Made by a program: the position numbers and the translations under genes. The notes beneath the pieces are model-generated. The model saw only the letters and a list, made by a program, of their open reading frames with translations. It did no database searches and was not told the DNA's origin. 35,150 nucleotides of DNA from a virus. Each line of letters begins with the position of its first letter. The first letter of the stretch is position 1. The stretch is from IMG/VR virus record IMGVR_UViG_3300042452_000380, positions 1-35,150 of that record. One strand, 5' to 3'. Shown piece by piece: positions 1-35,150 of this stretch.

Positions 1-99
1 GCTGTGGCGTCAGGCTGTGCTCAACAAGTGCAACTGGCAATGCGTGGACTGTAAGCGTGTGGCACACGGCAGAGAGATGCACGCGGACCACGTCGTGCC
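1..99. repeat. Terminal direct repeat, left copy (assembly overlap)
   Basis: These 99 bases are identical to 35052-35150. An exact repeat at both contig ends, lying inside one continuous gene, is what an assembler leaves when it walks around a circular or terminally redundant molecule. The length 99 equals a common assembly k-mer, so a k-mer overlap is more likely than a true phage terminal repeat. The unique genome is then 35,051 bp. Confidence 0.95.
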
Positions 100-21185: not shown

Positions 21186-21227
21186 CGTGCGGCCGAGAGT
21201 GGTGGACGCAAACGAAAGGAGGCCGCG

Positions 21228-22013
21228 ATGCGGCTACTGAAGACAGAGAACCGGAAAATCAACGTCGACGAACTGAACATCTCGGACGCGTACCAGAGGA
21301 CGATTGTCGCTGCGAGAGTGAACAGGATTGCCAAGAATCTCGACCAGGACGCCTTTGGCTCGCTTACGGTGGGCCAGCGGCGAGACGGCTCTCACTGGGT
21401 CGTGGACGGCATGCAGCGACTGACTGCCGCGCGAAAGCTCGGCATCGGCATGGTGCCGTGCGACGTTTTCCAGTCTGAAGGCCAGGAACATGAGGCCCGC
21501 GTGTTTCGGCTGAAGAACCGCGAGCGCACGAACGTTTCTGCCTGCGCCCTGTTCAGAGCTCAGCTGACTGAAGGCGACGAGCAGTCGCTGAAGATTGCTC
21601 AGGTTGTGAAGGATGCTGGCCTAAAGCTCGCCCTGCGAGACGAAGGAAGCCACTACCCGTACCTAAAGGCAGTGAAGGCGCTGGAAAGATCTTTTCAGCG
21701 TGTCGGTGCTGAGGGGCTGGCTGCTGCCTTGTCCATCTTGATTGATGCTTGGCCTGGCGAGGGCGGCTCGCTGCAGGGCGACATGATCGAGGGCATGTGC
21801 TGGTTCATCAAGAAGTGCCCGGAGTTTGATAGGTCGCGGCTTGTAGCTCGTCTCGGAAAGAAGTCGGTGACGAGCGTGGTTCGTGCTGCTGACGCCAACC
21901 TGAAGCTCGGCCGTGACCGCGACAGCTCGTCATATGGCCGATCGCTGGCGACGTATGACGCAATCGACCTGATCTACAGCAAGGGTCTGCGGCGCAAGCC
22001 TGCAGCCGTCTGA
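21228..22013 (+). CDS. ParB-like nuclease-domain protein
   Basis: A 261-aa protein whose first 90 residues follow the ParB/sulfiredoxin-like fold: INVDELNISDAYQRTIVAARVNRIAKNL, then DGSHWVVDGMQRLTAARKLG, the D-G-x-Q-R-L-x-A motif that binds nucleotide in this superfamily, and MVPCDVF. The rest is a helical domain unlike chromosomal ParB, lacking its HTH. Phage members of this group are thought to act as regulators or nucleases. AAAGGAGG precedes the ATG. Not a sign of a partition system, since no ParA gene is present. Confidence 0.82.
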   Translation: MRLLKTENRKINVDELNISDAYQRTIVAARVNRIAKNLDQDAFGSLTVGQRRDGSHWVVDGMQRLTAARKLGIGMVPCDVFQSEGQEHEARVFRLKNRERTNVSACALFRAQLTEGDEQSLKIAQVVKDAGLKLALRDEGSHYPYLKAVKALERSFQRVGAEGLAAALSILIDAWPGEGGSLQGDMIEGMCWFIKKCPEFDRSRLVARLGKKSVTSVVRAADANLKLGRDRDSSSYGRSLATYDAIDLIYSKGLRRKPAAV

Positions 22014-22082
22014 CCGACGCCGCCCTCGTGATAGGCACGAAGCCGCTTCGACGCGGCGGGGCGGAATGGAAAGGAGGCCAGC

Positions 22083-22307
22083 ATGCCAAACAAAAGCACT
22101 TTCACGCAGCTGCTTCTGCGAGAGATCAGAGCTCACTTCGAGCACAAGGCCGCGAGCGGCTCCGTGCCGGGCCATCACGCGGACGTTTACTACGCCGTCT
22201 CGCGTGAGATTGGCCGCATGACGCCGCAGTTCGTCGCCGAGGCCCGCCGCAAGCTCGGGTGGCAGGAAGCCGTTGACACACACCAGGAGGCGACAAGTGG
22301 CCGCTGA
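22083..22307 (+). CDS. Small hypothetical protein upstream of the initiator
   Basis: A 74-aa protein with AAAGGAGG six nt before the ATG. It is mostly helical (FTQLLLREIRAHFEHKAASG, ADVYYAVSREIGRMTPQFVAEARRKLGW). It overlaps the initiator gene start by 11 nt, so the two are co-translated. No domain recognised; a replication accessory role is possible by position. Confidence 0.65.
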   Translation: MPNKSTFTQLLLREIRAHFEHKAASGSVPGHHADVYYAVSREIGRMTPQFVAEARRKLGWQEAVDTHQEATSGR

Positions 22308-23190
22308 GGACAAGGTAGACGTGTACATGCCGCTTTATGTGCGCGACTTCCTGACATCTACGATTGGATGGACGGCCTGCGAGCGTGGCCACTATCTCAC
22401 GCTGCTAATGCTGCAGTGGGATCGGGACGGCCTACCTGCCGAACTTGATGCTCTGGATCGACTGTCGCCTGGCGTTGGCGATGTGTGGGCCATGCTTCAG
22501 GACAAGTTTCCGATAGAGGCAGACGGCCAGCGGCGAAACTCCAGGCTCGAGGACCACCGCGACCGGGCCGTGGAGCTGCGCCGAAAGCGATCCCAGGCTG
22601 GAAAGGCTGCGGCGGCTGCCCGAGTTTGTTCCATCAATCGTTCATCAAACGTTGAGCAAACGTTCAACGATCGTTCATCAATCGATAACCATCCACCTTC
22701 ACCTTCACCGTCACCTTCAGATGCAGGGATTTCTTCTAGCGAAGAAATTAATCAACCGGCTGCGCCGGTTGTTGCTACGAGCGATCCGCCGAAGCGTCGG
22801 AAACGCTCGCAGCACCACAACGCTGTACGCTGGTCAGATTCTGCAGGGTGGGAGGGAATCAGCCAGGAGGACAGGAAGACCTGGGCAGAGGCATACCCGG
22901 CCTGCGTGCTCGACATCGAGCTTGTGCGTGCCTCTGAGTGGCTCAAGGCCAACCCGACGCGAGCCCACAAATCCAACTGGCGGCGGTTCGTGGTGTCGTG
23001 GCTGACCAGGTCGCAGGACAGGGGCGGCACGAACCGCAGCGCGGGCAAGACGCCAGAGGATGCCGCGAAGCGCGCAGCCCTAGAGCGTAAGGCAAGAGAG
23101 TTTGCCGAGTACCGCCCAGCCCAATACCGCACCCCGAAGGAAGTCGCCGCGCTTGCGGCCGGGTTGAAACTCACGGAGGAGAGCACATGA
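22297..23190 (+). CDS. Replication initiator, DUF1376 (YdaU) type, with internal origin
   Basis: A 297-aa protein starting at GTG 22297 after CAGGAGG. Residues 6-80 match DUF1376: DVYMPLYVRDFLTSTIGW, ERGHYLTLLMLQWDRDGLP, a winged-helix domain found in phage replication proteins. Residues around 110-160 form a low-complexity Ser/Pro linker encoded by DNA full of iterons and hairpins. The C-terminal part (SDSAGWEGISQEDRKTWAEAYPA) resembles the helicase-loading ends of such initiators. Lambda O carries its origin in the same way inside its gene. Role: origin binding and recruitment of host helicase. Confidence 0.8.
   Translation: MAAEDKVDVYMPLYVRDFLTSTIGWTACERGHYLTLLMLQWDRDGLPAELDALDRLSPGVGDVWAMLQDKFPIEADGQRRNSRLEDHRDRAVELRRKRSQAGKAAAAARVCSINRSSNVEQTFNDRSSIDNHPPSPSPSPSDAGISSSEEINQPAAPVVATSDPPKRRKRSQHHNAVRWSDSAGWEGISQEDRKTWAEAYPACVLDIELVRASEWLKANPTRAHKSNWRRFVVSWLTRSQDRGGTNRSAGKTPEDAAKRAALERKAREFAEYRPAQYRTPKEVAALAAGLKLTEEST
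22628..22771. other. Predicted origin of replication (iterons plus hairpins)
   Basis: Five 11-bp tandem units start at 22628, 22639, 22650, 22661 and 22672: GTTCCATCAAT, CGTTCATCAAA, CGTTGAGCAAA, CGTTCAACGAT, CGTTCATCAAT. They keep exact 11-bp register, about one helical turn. CACCTT-type repeats follow. Then come two perfect hairpins: ATTTCTTC-TAGC-GAAGAAAT (22729-22748, AT-rich) and CAACCGGC-TGC-GCCGGTTG (22753-22771). The block is clearly AT-richer than the genome. Iterons beside an AT-rich unwinding region inside the initiator gene are the lambdoid origin plan. Confidence 0.8.
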
Positions 23191-23429
23191 CCACCACGAC
23201 CCCAATCCGCCCGCTGACCGATCGCCAGCGCGAGATCTATCGCTGGATCGTGAACTACATCGCAGCCCACGGCTACTCGCCCACGGTGCGCGAGCTCTGC
23301 TTAGCGTTCCGGTTCGACTCGCCCAACGGTGCCATGTGCCACCTGTTGCCGCTTCGGAAGAAAGGCTACTTGGTGTGGAACGAGCGTCAGTCTCGCACCA
23401 TTCGCCCGCTTCAAGAGGTGGACGCATGA
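23187..23429 (+). CDS. LexA-type DNA-binding domain protein without protease domain
   Basis: An 80-aa protein consisting only of the LexA N-terminal winged helix: LTDRQREIYRWIVNYIAAHGYSPTVRELCLAFRF, then a recognition helix region SPNGAMCHLLPLRKKGYL, and a wing. The C-terminal autoproteolytic domain (Ala-Gly cleavage site, Ser-Lys dyad) is absent, so it cannot self-cleave. It may act as a repressor or compete with host LexA at operators. It starts in an overlap with the initiator stop. Target sites are not identified. Confidence 0.87.
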   Translation: MTTTTPIRPLTDRQREIYRWIVNYIAAHGYSPTVRELCLAFRFDSPNGAMCHLLPLRKKGYLVWNERQSRTIRPLQEVDA

Positions 23430-23620
23430 GCTGCGAAAACCCGTACGAGCTGCCGCCCCCGTCGATCGTGGCTGACCTGTGCGCTCAGCGCGCGTGGGAT
23501 GACGAGATTGACGACGACACGCGGCTGCGTCTGGAGTTTGCGGCAGACACGATCCGGCACTTGATGGGCCGGCTTGTCCGCCAGGCGTTGCACCTCGAGC
23601 GAGCGGAGGCTGCCCGATGA
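23426..23620 (+). CDS. Small acidic hypothetical protein (64 aa)
   Basis: A 64-aa protein joined by an ATGA overlap to the LexA-like gene and again to the next small gene. It is acidic in the middle (WDDEIDDDTRLRLEFAADT) and ends in a helix (HLMGRLVRQALHLERAEAAR). No domain recognised. The continuous coupling makes it a real operon member. Confidence 0.62.
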   Translation: MSCENPYELPPPSIVADLCAQRAWDDEIDDDTRLRLEFAADTIRHLMGRLVRQALHLERAEAAR

Positions 23621-23760
23621 CCGTGCGCGACTTCGTGATGTTGAGCCTCGGAGAGATTGTCCTGCTGCTGACGTTCGGCACCGGGATTTTGGTGGGTTGT
23701 TCTTTGAAACGAAGGGAATCTGACAATGGCAACCGCGACGAAGAAGAGAACCGGAATTGA
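23617..23760 (+). CDS. Very small single-span membrane protein (47 aa)
   Basis: A 47-codon frame starting in the ATGA overlap at 23617. It reads TVRDFVMLSL, a membrane span GEIVLLLTFGTGILVG, then CSLKRRESDNGNRDEEENRN. The span followed by basic residues predicts an N-out, C-in topology. Its 3' end overlaps the sliding clamp start by 35 nt. Short, but coupled to neighbours and with a coherent membrane segment, so probably real. Function unknown. Confidence 0.6.
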   Translation: MTVRDFVMLSLGEIVLLLTFGTGILVGCSLKRRESDNGNRDEEENRN

Positions 23761-24829
23761 ACTGGCGGCGTTGGACCTAAAGGCGGCGCTCGCCGCAGTC
23801 TCGCCAGCCGTGCCGACTCGAGCACCGAAGCCCATCTACCAGGCCGTGCGTCTGGGCGACGGCGTGCTCACTGGATCGGACGGCGAGGTGCGGATCGACG
23901 TGGCGATCGACTACCACGGGGATGCGCTGCTGCTGCCACACGGCAGGCTTTCGCAGATTCTCGGGGCAGCGACGGGCGATACGGTGACACTCCAGCCGGG
24001 CGACACGTCGTGCGTTGTGAAAGCTGGGAGCGGTACGTGGACGCTGCCAACGGAGTCGGCGGCGGAATACCCCATGTGGGAGCCGGCCGACGCCAAGCCG
24101 GTGACGCGACTGCCTGCCGATCAGTTCGTGCGGGCGGTGCGTGGCGTGGTGTTCGCCACCGACGATGACTCCAGCCGTTTTGCCTTGGGCGCGGTGCTCA
24201 TTGAGGTGAAGGGCGAGACGGTGTCATTCGTTGCCACGGACGGGCGCAGGCTCTCGCTCGTGGAGTGCGAGCATGACCTGGCGGTGGACGATTCCACGAC
24301 GCTGGTGCCAAGCCGGGCGATGGCGATCCTGTCGCGGCTGGCGTCAGCCGACTCGGACGGTTCCGTGCAGCTCGAGGCGACGGCCAAAGAGATCATTGCC
24401 ACGGTGGGCACGGCGACCGTCACGGCCAGGCTCATTGAAGGACGCTTCCCCAGGTGGCGCGACGTGGTGCCGGATCTGGACTGCGAGCCCACTACCGTGC
24501 TCGCGGAGCAGCTGCTCAGCGCCGTGAAGGCGGCGGCGATCGTGACCACCGAGCAGTCGAGGGGCATCGACTTTGCCTTCTCCGAGAAGGGGCTGTGGCT
24601 CCACGGTCAGTCGAGCGAGGCCGGCGAGTCCAGCGTGACGTGCGATCTCGTGGAGGCTGGCACTGCATGCAGCGTGAAGTTGGACCCGCGCTACGTCCGG
24701 CAGTGGCTGGAAGGGCTGCCGGCGGACGGCGAGCCAACAGTCAGCGTACAGGCTAAGGACGGGCAGTCGGCGGTGATCCTGCGAACGGATTGCCACACGG
24801 GCGTTGTGATGCCCATGGCAGCGGAGTGA
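23726..24829 (+). CDS. dnaN: DNA polymerase III sliding clamp (beta subunit)
   Basis: A 367-aa protein of full DnaN length. Three repeated clamp domains are visible: domain 1 (ALDLKAALAAVSPAVPTR...LPHGRLSQIL), domain 2 (QFVRAVRGVVFATDDDSSRFALGAVLIEV, then VATDGRRLSLVE) and domain 3 (EGRFPRWRDVVP, closing TGVVMPMAAE, matching the C-terminal MPMRL of E. coli). As a dimeric ring it tethers polymerase and repair enzymes to DNA. No polymerase gene is recognisable in the genome, so it must work with host or unknown partners. AAGGGAATC precedes its ATG. Confidence 0.93.
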   Translation: MATATKKRTGIELAALDLKAALAAVSPAVPTRAPKPIYQAVRLGDGVLTGSDGEVRIDVAIDYHGDALLLPHGRLSQILGAATGDTVTLQPGDTSCVVKAGSGTWTLPTESAAEYPMWEPADAKPVTRLPADQFVRAVRGVVFATDDDSSRFALGAVLIEVKGETVSFVATDGRRLSLVECEHDLAVDDSTTLVPSRAMAILSRLASADSDGSVQLEATAKEIIATVGTATVTARLIEGRFPRWRDVVPDLDCEPTTVLAEQLLSAVKAAAIVTTEQSRGIDFAFSEKGLWLHGQSSEAGESSVTCDLVEAGTACSVKLDPRYVRQWLEGLPADGEPTVSVQAKDGQSAVILRTDCHTGVVMPMAAE

Positions 24830-25528: not shown

Positions 25529-26037
25529 TGCACCTCGTCCAGCGCCTCCGTGAGAGCGTCAGGGCGTGTCGTGCGCTCGACCGCTCGGCGCTTCTCGCGG
25601 AGGCCGCTGACGAGCTGGAGCGGCTGACAACGCCAATGAACGCCATCACGTTTTCAGTTCCCGGCGATCCTGTGCCGCAGCCTCGAGCTCGCGTCTCGAC
25701 TGCGGGCGGGTTCGCTCGCGCGTACGTGCCAAAGAAGCACCCGGTGCATGCGTACCGCCACTCGATCCAGATGGCGGCCATCGACGCCGGGCTGCGCAAC
25801 GAAGGCTTGCCCGTGGCGGTCGTGATCGACGCCGTCTTCGCCAGGCCGAAATCGCACATGCGGAAGTCTGGCGTTAAGCCAGACGCACCGCAGCTGCCAC
25901 GGCCAGACGTGGACAACCTGGCGAAAGCGGTGCTCGATGCAATCGGCCCGATCCTTGGAGATGACACGCAGGTGAGCCGCCTGGTGGTGGAGAAGTCATA
26001 CGGCACGGAGGCACGCACCACGGTGCGAATCACATGA
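25528..26037 (+). CDS. rusA: RusA-family Holliday junction resolvase with N-terminal extension
   Basis: A 169-aa endonuclease that resolves four-way junctions, useful with the Bet protein. The RusA domain begins at about residue 37 (NAITFSVPGDPVPQPRARV). It shows the catalytic pattern RPDVDNLAKAVLDAI (125-139) and DD145-146 (GDDTQV), whose aspartates bind metal. Residues 1-36 (HLVQRLRESVR...LAEAADELERL) form a helical extension not part of RusA. The in-frame ATG at 25636 would start the domain alone. The chosen start overlaps the upstream stop, as TGATG. Confidence 0.9.
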   Translation: MHLVQRLRESVRACRALDRSALLAEAADELERLTTPMNAITFSVPGDPVPQPRARVSTAGGFARAYVPKKHPVHAYRHSIQMAAIDAGLRNEGLPVAVVIDAVFARPKSHMRKSGVKPDAPQLPRPDVDNLAKAVLDAIGPILGDDTQVSRLVVEKSYGTEARTTVRIT

Positions 26038-26555
26038 CCTGGCAAGAGTACCTGGCAACGGTGGACTGCTCGCACCAGATGACCACGGCCCGCGATCACA
26101 TCGGCGAATTGTGCGAGATCGTGCAGGTCCGAGAGTGGCGGGTGCTCGAGCTCGGTAGCCATGCCGGGATCTCGACGGCCGCCATGGCAATCGCCGCCCC
26201 TGAGTCCACTATCGTGAGCGTCGATCTCTGCGACACGATGCCCGAGGCAAGCCGCGTGGCGTATTGGGAAACTCTTGGCGTGGCAAACATTCAGCCGGTG
26301 GCCGATGACGCCGGGCGGTTCCTGCGGGATTGCCACCTGCATCTCGATTGGTGGGATTTGATCTTTCACGACGCAGCCCACGGCGACGCTGTGCTGCCTG
26401 AGTACCTGACGGCTGCCGGCATCGCCACAATCCTGGCGATCCACGACTGGGAGCAGCTTTCGAGCTTGTCGCAGGACGCCGTGGCTAGACGCTTTAAACG
26501 GCACACGGTGACAACCGACACACAGGGGCGGGCGTTGTTCGTCGGCCATGCCTGA
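26034..26555 (+). CDS. Class I SAM-dependent methyltransferase
   Basis: A 173-aa protein with motif I VLELGSHAGIS (residues 37-47), post-I VSVD (61-64) and a later D/H segment LIFHDAAHGD and AIHDWEQL. This pattern is that of O-methyltransferase-type small-molecule or sugar methylases (compare family members with LELGSxxGxS and HDxxH). It is coupled by ATGA on the left and overlaps a glycosyltransferase on the right, so methylation of a transferred sugar is plausible. Substrate not known. Confidence 0.8.
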   Translation: MTWQEYLATVDCSHQMTTARDHIGELCEIVQVREWRVLELGSHAGISTAAMAIAAPESTIVSVDLCDTMPEASRVAYWETLGVANIQPVADDAGRFLRDCHLHLDWWDLIFHDAAHGDAVLPEYLTAAGIATILAIHDWEQLSSLSQDAVARRFKRHTVTTDTQGRALFVGHA

Positions 26556-27165
26556 CCTGGTGCTGACCGGCTGGGCTGGCGTGGAGTTTGCCCAGATCGC
26601 AGCTCACACGCTGCCACGCATCCACGCCTACGCTGCCCGGCACGGGCTGGCTTGCGGGTGTGCGAACCTGGCCGGCGAGCGGCCGGCTTCCTGGATGAAG
26701 GTGCGTGCGATCATGCAGGCGCTGCAGACGCACGAGCGTGTAGCGTGGATCGACGCTGACGTGGTGATCCTCGACGGCTCAGCGAACATCGTGGACGAGC
26801 TGGGCAGTGCGTGGCAGGGGATCGTAGAGCACGAGACAGAGTGCGGCCTGGTGCCGAACTGCGGCGTGTGGGTTGTCGCTCGGCCAATGCTGCCAGTGCT
26901 TGTGGACGTGTGGAACGCCGAGCATTGCGTCGATCATCCGTGGTGGGAGCAGGCGGCGCTGCTCGAGCAGATGGGCTACCGGGTCAACGGCGTACGCTCC
27001 ACGCTTGACACGCCGACCACGCTGTACGAGCTGACGAAGTTCTTGCACCCGACGTGGAATCATCACCCGGCCGATCGGCGGCGAGTCGATGCGCCACGGT
27101 TCCTACACGTGACGCAATATGCCGACCGACTCGGAAAAATCCGCTCGCTCTGTGCCGGTGCCTGA
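26548..27165 (+). CDS. Glycosyltransferase with GT-A DxD motif
   Basis: A 205-aa protein of the GT34/GT-A-like type. W-I-D69-A-D71-VVILD is the metal-binding motif; the upstream PASWMKVRAIMQALQTHERVAW is the typical K-x-x-A-x-x-x-A helix. A donor-side segment GVWVVARPMLPVL and a later WWEQAALLEQMGY, close to the NWEQ-like catalytic region of this clan, follow. It overlaps the methyltransferase by eight nt. It probably adds hexose to a glycan or to a phage or host target. Confidence 0.82.
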   Translation: MPDLVLTGWAGVEFAQIAAHTLPRIHAYAARHGLACGCANLAGERPASWMKVRAIMQALQTHERVAWIDADVVILDGSANIVDELGSAWQGIVEHETECGLVPNCGVWVVARPMLPVLVDVWNAEHCVDHPWWEQAALLEQMGYRVNGVRSTLDTPTTLYELTKFLHPTWNHHPADRRRVDAPRFLHVTQYADRLGKIRSLCAGA

Positions 27166-27210
27166 TCGCTTCGTGTAGCTCTGAAGTCTTAATTCCAGGA
27201 GTCACTCAAA

Positions 27211-28215
27211 ATGGTGGACATTGCTAGCGAGTTTGATGGCATCTCTGTTCGGAAAGACATCTGCGACCTGACGAAGGAAACAGCGGCCTCCCTTTCAAGA
27301 TTTGAAAAGGGACGCACGCAGCAGGCAATCGAGCTCGATCAATCAATCACGCCGGATAAAGTTCTGCCCGTCGATCATGAGTTCGCTGCCCAGTATGCCG
27401 ACGTGACGTGCGAGGGCGCGACGATAGCCGCTCGGTCCAAGGTTGTGTTTATCGGGATGGCCCGGCAACTCGGAGGCATCCTGCCGCTGACGCTGAGCCG
27501 ACTTTCAGATCTCAGCAAACACTTCAAGACGACCTGCGTAGTGGTGGTTGAAAACGACTCGACAGACTCAACGAAAGAGATCCTCAGTACGTTTGCGGCC
27601 GACAACCCCAAGACGGTGGTTGTGGATTCCAGCGACAACGGCAGGCCGCACCTGCATGGCTTTGAGCCGAGCCGAGTCCAGGCGTATGCCGAGTATCGCA
27701 ATCGAGGCAGAGAGCTTGCCCTGGAACACTTCGGCGACGCTGACTATGTGATCGTCGTGGACCTCGACGCATGGGGAGGGTGGAGCACTCACGGGCTAAT
27801 CAACGGTATCGGCTGGCTCGAAAGAATTAAGGACGCCGCGTGCATGGCGAGCACCTCGCTCTTTCAGCACCCTGGAAACTTCGTAGATGGCAAGCAGGTG
27901 TGGTGCCACTATGACCAATGGGCCTTCCGTTGGCATGGGTGGAAAGCACGCATGGAAGCCTGGTTTACGTTCTGGCTTCCGCCGCCTGGGGCGCATCCGA
28001 TTCGCGTCTTGTCTGCGTTTGGTGCTGCGGCGATTTACAAGGCAGAGCCGTTCTTCGCCTGCAAATACGAGTCGATCAACGGAGACATCGAGCACGCCGG
28101 CCTGCACAACAACATGATTGCCAAAGGCTGGTCTATCTGGCTCAACCCTGCACAACGGACGCTGATGCAATGGACGCCGGAGACCACGGATGGCGGGCAA
28201 CACGGCGGCAATTAG
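27211..28215 (+). CDS. Glycosyltransferase, CAP59-like GT-A fold
   Basis: A 334-aa protein with an N-terminal region of about 70 residues and a GT-A core. It shows FIGMARQLGGILPLTLSRL (79-97), VVVENDSTDSTKEIL (111-125), YRNRGRELALEHFGDADYV, and VVDLDAWGG with D184-L-D186 as the DxD motif. This order matches cryptococcal CAP59-type mannosyltransferases and related bacterial capsule proteins. CAGGAG precedes the ATG after a 45-bp gap. With the preceding genes it forms a surface-glycan or virion-glycan cassette. Confidence 0.82.
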   Translation: MVDIASEFDGISVRKDICDLTKETAASLSRFEKGRTQQAIELDQSITPDKVLPVDHEFAAQYADVTCEGATIAARSKVVFIGMARQLGGILPLTLSRLSDLSKHFKTTCVVVVENDSTDSTKEILSTFAADNPKTVVVDSSDNGRPHLHGFEPSRVQAYAEYRNRGRELALEHFGDADYVIVVDLDAWGGWSTHGLINGIGWLERIKDAACMASTSLFQHPGNFVDGKQVWCHYDQWAFRWHGWKARMEAWFTFWLPPPGAHPIRVLSAFGAAAIYKAEPFFACKYESINGDIEHAGLHNNMIAKGWSIWLNPAQRTLMQWTPETTDGGQHGGN

Positions 28216-34938: not shown

Positions 34939-35150
34939 ATGCCCGCACGCATTCCAGCGTTTAGGCCGCCACGGTTGCGGACTGCTGCCAGGCGTGATGA
35001 GTCAGGCAGGCCCAACGCAGCTGCACGAGGCTACTGCGACAAAGCCCACAAGCTGTGGCGTCAGGCTGTGCTCAACAAGTGCAACTGGCAATGCGTGGAC
35101 TGTAAGCGTGTGGCACACGGCAGAGAGATGCACGCGGACCACGTCGTGCC
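34939..35150 (+). CDS. HNH endonuclease, N-terminal part (continues at position 1)
   Basis: The gene starts at ATG 34939, four bases after the previous stop, and runs off the window end; the last 99 bases repeat positions 1-99. It gives a basic N-terminus (RIPAFRPPRLRTAARR) and a helix KAHKLWRQAVL before the first zinc Cys pair. Joined to the part at 1-235 the protein has 115 aa with no frame break, which confirms circularity. Role as given for the other part. Confidence 0.93.
   Translation, partial: MPARIPAFRPPRLRTAARRDESGRPNAAARGYCDKAHKLWRQAVLNKCNWQCVDCKRVAHGREMHADHVV
35052..35150. repeat. Terminal direct repeat, right copy
   Basis: Exact copy of positions 1-99; see the left copy. The genome unit is best taken as positions 1-35051, closed into a circle. 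Confidence 0.95.

What the first reader, a model, noticed from the sequence alone, without database searches (positions are those of the whole stretch)
22628..22771. Origin of replication built into the initiator gene: five 11-bp iterons in register plus two perfect hairpins
Units of consensus CGTTCATCAAA start at 22628, 22639, 22650, 22661 and 22672, exactly 11 bp apart. CACCTT repeats follow, then an AT-rich hairpin with 8-bp stem (ATTTCTTC/GAAGAAAT) and a GC hairpin with 8-bp stem and 3-nt loop (CAACCGGC/GCCGGTTG). The block encodes only a Ser/Asn/Pro linker, so coding constraint is low. Iterons within the initiator gene recall lambda O, but the 11-bp register and the DUF1376-type initiator are different. 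This may be an origin type not described for this group.
Basis: partly seen in the sequence, partly recalled or inferred. Interest (0 to 1): 0.85.

Follow-up and report, generated by a model that had tools for sequence, protein, structure and literature searches.

The report
Phage replication origin inside initiator gene
Inside the gene for a phage's replication-starting protein lies a DNA signal, an 11-base repeat array plus three hairpins, that evolution preserves letter by letter although the protein there is floppy filler; it is very probably where the phage starts copying its DNA, and a similar layout recurs in other phages.

Summary
The DUF1376-type initiator gene (GTG 22297 to 23190) carries an 11-bp repeat array at 22628-22693 (four good units, two degenerate edge units), a CACCTT array and three hairpins, not two (22729-22748, 22753-22771, 22773-22814). 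No codon-permuted version of the gene reached the repeat score (0/2000). In relatives, synonymous codons are about 90% identical across 22627-22815 against about 52% elsewhere in the gene; no comparable block was found in the shared genes examined. Stem changes that keep pairing are all compensatory (5 pairs, 12 cells). The element encodes a predicted disordered linker. A sister class has a different 11-bp repeat (CGCATAGCAAA) together with a different putative recognition helix, but the same hairpins and C-terminal domain. All 35 class-fixed residues lie in positions 35-136. This indicates that the N-terminal domain reads the iterons. Best reading: a lambda-O-like in-gene origin with one-helical-turn direct iterons and a folded single-strand landing zone. 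Cultured phages (Pseudomonas UFJF_PfDIW6, Ruminococcus phiRgIBDN1) also have in-gene 11-bp arrays. New variant of a known kind. No binding or replication was tested.

The parts
22285..22290 (+). AGGAGG ribosome-binding site of the initiator gene
   Evidence: sequence
22297..23190 (+). initiator / replisome-organiser gene (GTG start, 297 aa): DUF1376-like N-terminal domain, disordered linker, C-terminal domain EWLKANPT...NWRRF..WL. Residue numbers in this report count from the Asp at 22309 (add 4 for the full-length protein)
   Evidence: Pfam PF07120 E 1.5e-6 (28.9 bits, cut-off 30.1) and PHROG 3992 'primosomal protein' E 2.8e-11; AlphaFold
22474..22506 (+). codes for predicted helix 56-66 of the N-terminal domain, the putative recognition helix; class-specific residues 58, 59, 61, 62, 64
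22628..22693 (+). iteron array, 11-bp period: good units at 22639, 22650, 22661, 22672; degenerate edge units at 22628 and 22683
22694..22719 (+). CACCTT hexamer array (4.3 copies), pyrimidine-rich on the + strand; class-specific (CAACGT in the sister class)
22729..22748 (+). hairpin 1, AT-rich: ATTTCTTC-TAGC-GAAGAAAT; 3 of 8 pairs with compensatory changes in relatives
22753..22771 (+). hairpin 2, GC-rich: CAACCGGC-TGC-GCCGGTTG; one compensatory pair; also kept where the N-terminal domain is replaced (L014, L037, L038)
22627..22815 (+). whole origin element: block of near-complete synonymous conservation

Best explanation
The block 22627-22815 is the phage's origin of replication, embedded in the gene for its own initiator. 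Inferred mechanism: one DUF1376 winged-helix-like N-terminal domain binds each 11-bp direct repeat, so protomers stack head to tail on one face of the helix, one per turn. This strains the adjacent strand-asymmetric hexamer array and the AT-rich hairpin-1 region, which open. The exposed strand folds into three hairpins that, with the C-terminal domain, form the landing zone for the host replicative helicase and primase; the phage shows no recognised helicase, loader or primase but does encode its own DnaN clamp. Shown here: the repeats, synonymous constraint, covarying stems, cassette exchange of N-terminal domain with cognate iterons, and predicted disorder of the encoded linker. Inferred: binding, unwinding, helicase loading, and that replication starts here.
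For: (1) The repeat score is not reached in 2000 codon permutations. (2) Synonymous identity in class-A relatives is 0.93 (iterons), 0.89 (hexamers), 0.94 (hairpins 1-2) and 0.86 (to 22815), against 0.53 and 0.52 in the flanking domains. Among the shared genes tested, the best sliding windows all fall in this block. (3) Three hairpins: 99.4% of cells paired, 5 pairs and 12 cells with both-side changes, no one-sided paired changes, 0/500 shuffles as high on covariation score, nothing comparable when partners are slid. (4) A sister class keeps the 11-bp register with another sequence, CGCATAGCAAA; the 35 class-fixed residues all lie in residues 35-136, none in 1-34 or in the C-terminal domain. 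L010 equals the window at 0.94-0.98 from 22753 on but 0.33-0.78 upstream: a junction at hairpin 2. (5) A third repeat class (CAAACTCCCGA, 11 bp) goes with a weakly Lin1244-like domain. (6) Other cases in cultured phages: Pseudomonas UFJF_PfDIW6 (DUF1376-type gene followed by DnaC) and Ruminococcus phiRgIBDN1 gp42. The Pseudomonas lineage has two in-gene synonymous-constraint blocks with 11-bp repeats. (7) The neighbourhood holds RecT, DnaN and RusA.
Against: No binding, footprint or replication data. GC skew does not switch at 22.7 kb. The DUF1376 hit in the window is just below Pfam's cut-off, although a close relative passes. Foldseek finds no significant solved structure, so the winged-helix reading of the N-terminal domain and the helicase-loading role of the C-terminal domain are inferred. 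Only 10 distinct sequences support the covariation. The absence of helicase, loader and primase rests on Pfam and PHROG scans of most but not all window ORFs.
Confidence: 0.85

Rival explanations
1. The hairpins act in the messenger RNA: a structured element inside the coding sequence (attenuation, translational pausing, or antitermination like phage HK022 put sites), with the repeats a separate operator.
For: The covarying stems fit RNA as well as DNA; the genes around the initiator lie on the + strand, so the block is presumably transcribed.
Against: No G-U intermediates on either strand among 10 distinct sequences, though that is a small sample; no Rfam match; iterons and hexamers show no pairing constraint of that kind; the element sits in the initiator linker also where the N-terminal domain is replaced.
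Confidence: 0.12
2. The array is an operator or a centromere: the protein represses its own operon, or the ParB-like DUF6551 protein encoded at 21228-22013 uses the repeats for partition.
For: A ParB-like gene is close by; iterons often double as autoregulatory sites (general knowledge).
Against: The array is about 330 bp inside the gene, not at a promoter; no sigma-70-like promoter in 21200-23700, though the host's promoters are unknown. Iteron sequence changes with residues of the initiator's own domain. A DUF6551 homologue was found in only two of the 11 relatives searched.
Confidence: 0.08
3. The DNA is conserved because it is a recombination junction: frequent exchange at the hairpins homogenises the sequence without a function.
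For: Mosaic junctions do fall there (L010 at 22753; L013 after the hexamers).
Against: Homogenisation does not create compensatory double changes, nor keep the 11-bp pattern while individual units and amino acids change, nor readily give high synonymous identity with both flanks at about 0.5.
Confidence: 0.05
4. The GC hairpin is an ordinary intrinsic terminator for antisense transcripts.
For: A terminator-like hit on the - strand at 22771-22753.
Against: Fewer such hits than shuffles give (1 against 1.9), poor T tail, no obvious minus-strand gene to terminate nearby, and it does not explain the iterons or the other two hairpins.
Confidence: 0.02

Closest known systems
Phage lambda ori inside gene O (lambdoid O-type origins)
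   Same: Initiator gene carries its own iterons in the middle of the gene, next to an AT-rich region (PMC7466680 for lambda)
   Different: Lambda iterons are 19-bp imperfect inverted repeats (PMC7466680); here they are 11-bp direct repeats, one per helical turn. The protein is DUF1376-like, not Phage_rep_O; no P-type loader follows; a trio of covarying hairpins is present
DUF1376 / 'primosomal protein' phage genes (E. coli Rac ydaU, Pseudomonas phage UFJF_PfDIW6)
   Same: Same N-terminal family; PfDIW6 also has in-gene 11-bp repeats under synonymous constraint
   Different: PfDIW6 and phage 683R6 genes are followed by DnaC-like loaders; the window's C-terminal domain is not shared; PfDIW6 relatives have purine repeats where the window has hexamers and hairpins
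Lin1244-type replisome organisers (e.g. Ruminococcus phage phiRgIBDN1 gp42, annotated 'replisome organizer')
   Same: In-gene 11-bp array in the linker (CAACCANNTGT)
   Different: Different N-terminal domain and iteron sequence; family assignment of gp42 was not tested here
Single-strand initiation sites (G4 oric, RSF1010 ssiA/ssiB; from general knowledge)
   Same: Hairpins beside an origin that could serve priming on single-stranded DNA
   Different: No sequence relation was shown; the phage encodes no recognised primase; function untested

Membership tests
Lambda-O-type in-gene origin | Iterons lie inside the initiator gene | tested here: met
Lambda-O-type in-gene origin | Iterons are 18-19 bp imperfect inverted repeats | tested here: not met
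   11-bp direct repeats; lambda feature from PMC7466680
Lambda-O-type in-gene origin | Initiator belongs to Phage_rep_O | tested here: not met
   Pfam finds only DUF1376
Lambda-O-type in-gene origin | AT-rich region beside the iterons | tested here: met
   22729-22752 is 18 of 24 A/T in a genome of about 62% GC
Lambda-O-type in-gene origin | Helicase loader gene follows | tested here: not met
   next recognised genes are a LexA-type DNA-binding protein and DnaN; no loader found in Pfam scans
Lambda-O-type in-gene origin | Initiator binds the iterons and opens the AT-rich DNA | not testable with these tools
   only indirect: class-specific residues travel with iteron class
DUF1376 (PF07120) | Matches the curated profile above its cut-off | tested here: inconclusive
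   window 28.9 bits against 30.1; relative L010 32.4; BFVD fold matches to DUF1376 proteins at E 1.8e-4 and 2.6e-4
Single-strand initiation site (ssi) | Stable hairpins on one strand, kept by selection | tested here: met
Single-strand initiation site (ssi) | Primase, RNA polymerase or primosome starts synthesis there on ssDNA | not testable with these tools
   needs an in vitro or ssDNA-vector assay

The most novel reading that the evidence does not exclude
A two-part origin inside one gene: an exchangeable cassette (recognition helix + cognate one-turn iterons + hexamers) that sets specificity, joined at a hairpin to a constant cassette (DNA hairpins + C-terminal domain) that acts as a folded single-strand site for loading host helicase and primase without a phage loader. 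Helically phased 11-bp in-gene iterons would be a common design of several different phage initiator families.
Probability: 0.35. Interest if true: 0.78.

Novelty: new variant of a known kind. Interest (0 to 1): 0.62.

Why it matters
If right, a protein family still labelled 'unknown function' (DUF1376) is a phage origin-binding domain whose DNA site can be read from its own gene. That gives a way to find origins in uncultured phages by computation. Class A and class B form a natural domain-swap experiment, so specificity can be tested with a few proteins and DNA fragments. The covarying hairpin trio raises a testable question: how a phage without a recognised helicase loader recruits the host replisome.

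Tried and rejected
Low-complexity protein artefact: rejected by codon permutation. Chance repeat: control ORFs: 151 ORFs, 14 above their null; nine of the 14 were themselves initiator-type genes my filter had missed (L045, L049-L051, L053, L054, L138, L142, L148), the other five had no lag-11 signal. Solved-structure searches with the whole model, the profile and the C-terminal domain were uninformative. Rfam found nothing. GC skew uninformative. Iteron-like sites elsewhere in the window do not exceed chance (42 hits at up to 2 mismatches against 35 +/- 7). Some DUF1376 genes of other phages (Bradyrhizobium, Rhizobium TM3, Acetobacter) show no 11-bp array, so the layout is common but not universal. 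In the window's own family, L014, L037, L038 and L039 have no convincing 11-bp array either, but they also have another N-terminal domain.

Full report
What is there. The window is a 35,150-bp virus record whose ends overlap by 99 identical bases, so it is probably a complete circular or terminally redundant phage. The gene in question starts at GTG 22297 behind AGGAGG (22285-22290) and ends at 23190. Its product has a DUF1376-like N-terminal domain and matches PHROG 'primosomal protein' profiles. Neighbours include RecT, a LexA-type DNA-binding protein whose ATG overlaps the initiator's stop, a DnaN-like sliding clamp and RusA. No helicase, helicase loader or primase family was found in the ORFs scanned.

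The observation. The 11-bp array, the CACCTT array and both hairpins are present. Four repeat units are good (22639, 22650, 22661, 22672); the unit at 22628 and a sixth slot at 22683 are degenerate edges. Permuting the gene's synonymous codons 2000 times never reached the observed repeat score, and no other region of the window reaches it. Folding the strand revealed a third, bulged hairpin at 22773-22814.

Conservation. About a dozen distinct relatives in IMG/VR carry the gene at 69-88% protein identity. Outside the block, synonymous codons agree in about 52% of cases; inside 22627-22815 they agree in 86-94% within class A. Sliding windows over the shared neighbouring genes put the top values in this block. 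The relevant protein stretch is predicted disordered (residues 111-169). So selection here acts on nucleotides, not amino acids. The iteron pattern persists while the encoded residues change: the same unit reads ACGTTCAACGA, ACGTTCATCAA, ACGTCCATCAA, TCGTTGAGCAA or ACGTTGAGCAA in different relatives.

Hairpins. Among 12 sequences (10 distinct), 32 pairs give 99.4% standard pairing. All stem changes that keep pairing are two-sided: five pairs, twelve cells, in all three helices, with no one-sided changes. Column shuffles and slid partners do not reproduce this. L009, for instance, changes CCGG to CAGG and the opposite arm to match, altering Pro to Gln in the protein. A covariance model finds the element in L014, whose N-terminal domain is different (E 2e-10), and only weakly in L038 (E 0.7). 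Hairpin 2 itself is plain in L037 and L038, with a compensatory outermost pair in L038.

Specificity cassette. Class B relatives (L010-L013, L028, L029, L031) keep the 11-bp register but with CGCATAGCAAA and CAACGT hexamers. All 35 residues fixed differently between classes lie at 35-136, none in the 157 residues after that or in the first 34; five fall in predicted helix 56-66, the likely recognition helix. Seventeen of the 35 lie in the linker and simply mirror the DNA repeats; the other 18 lie in the folded domain. L003 looks class-B-like in its first 30 residues yet has class A iterons, placing specificity after residue 30. L010 is nearly identical to the window from 22753 on and diverged before it: recombination exchanged domain plus iterons as one unit, with the junction at hairpin 2. 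A third class (L017, L018) with a weakly Lin1244-like N-terminal domain has CAAACTCCCGA repeats, again 11 bp. Units of all three classes contain CAAA or CAAT.

Generality. Cultured phages with related genes include Pseudomonas UFJF_PfDIW6 and Ruminococcus phiRgIBDN1, both with in-gene 11-bp arrays. Of 39 non-redundant initiator genes from three searches, 21 have a best repeat at lag 11 above their codon-permuted null; these are dominated by the Pseudomonas lineage, so they are not 21 independent events. Among 151 control ORFs only two had this, and both were initiators that my filter missed. In 20 Pseudomonas-type genes, synonymous identity rises to 0.82-0.90 at codons 55-74 and 0.83-1.00 at 115-147, both with 11-bp repeats, the second followed by AGAAG or GATACA repeats. 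Not all DUF1376 genes show it.

Mechanism. The simplest account is an origin read by its own initiator: head-to-tail N-terminal domains, one per helical turn, then melting of the hexamer and AT-rich stretch, then use of folded single strand plus C-terminal domain to bring in the host helicase and primase. The first half is supported by co-inheritance; the second half is inference. The hairpins could instead work in RNA; the lack of G-U intermediates leans towards DNA but is weak with ten sequences.

Comparison. In-gene iterons next to AT-rich DNA are the lambda O plan (PMC7466680), but lambda iterons are 19-bp inverted repeats and the protein family differs. I found no paper in the library on DUF1376 proteins as origin binders or on 11-bp in-gene phage iterons; subscription literature, including reviews of phage replication modules, is mostly not covered. 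I therefore call it a new variant of a known kind.

Noticed in passing
window 1-99 and 35052-35150: Identical 99-bp ends: the record is probably a complete circular or terminally redundant phage genome.
   Followed up: partly
window 23726-24829: Phage-encoded DnaN-like sliding clamp (all three Pfam clamp domains; third just under cut-off), with homologues near the initiator in many relatives.
   Followed up: partly
window 23187-23429: LexA DNA-binding domain alone, without the protease part, overlapping the initiator stop codon (ATGA).
   Followed up: no
window 21228-22013: DUF6551 / ParB-like protein upstream of the initiator.
   Followed up: no
L047 and relatives L055-L084, codons 55-74 of the DUF1376 gene: A second in-gene block of synonymous constraint with 11-bp repeats inside the folded N-terminal domain, so these phages may have two iteron arrays in one gene.
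   Followed up: partly
L037, L038, L014 linkers: Where the N-terminal domain is replaced, the 11-bp iterons are gone and short purine repeats (AAGAC, AGGAG, ACAGA) sit before the same GC hairpin.
   Followed up: partly
L138-L139: Genes of another lineage related to the Ruminococcus replisome organizer, with 12-bp in-gene repeats containing AACGGTT/AACCGTT.
   Followed up: no
window 26034-28215: Methyltransferase and glycosyltransferase-like genes downstream of RusA; role unknown.
   Followed up: no
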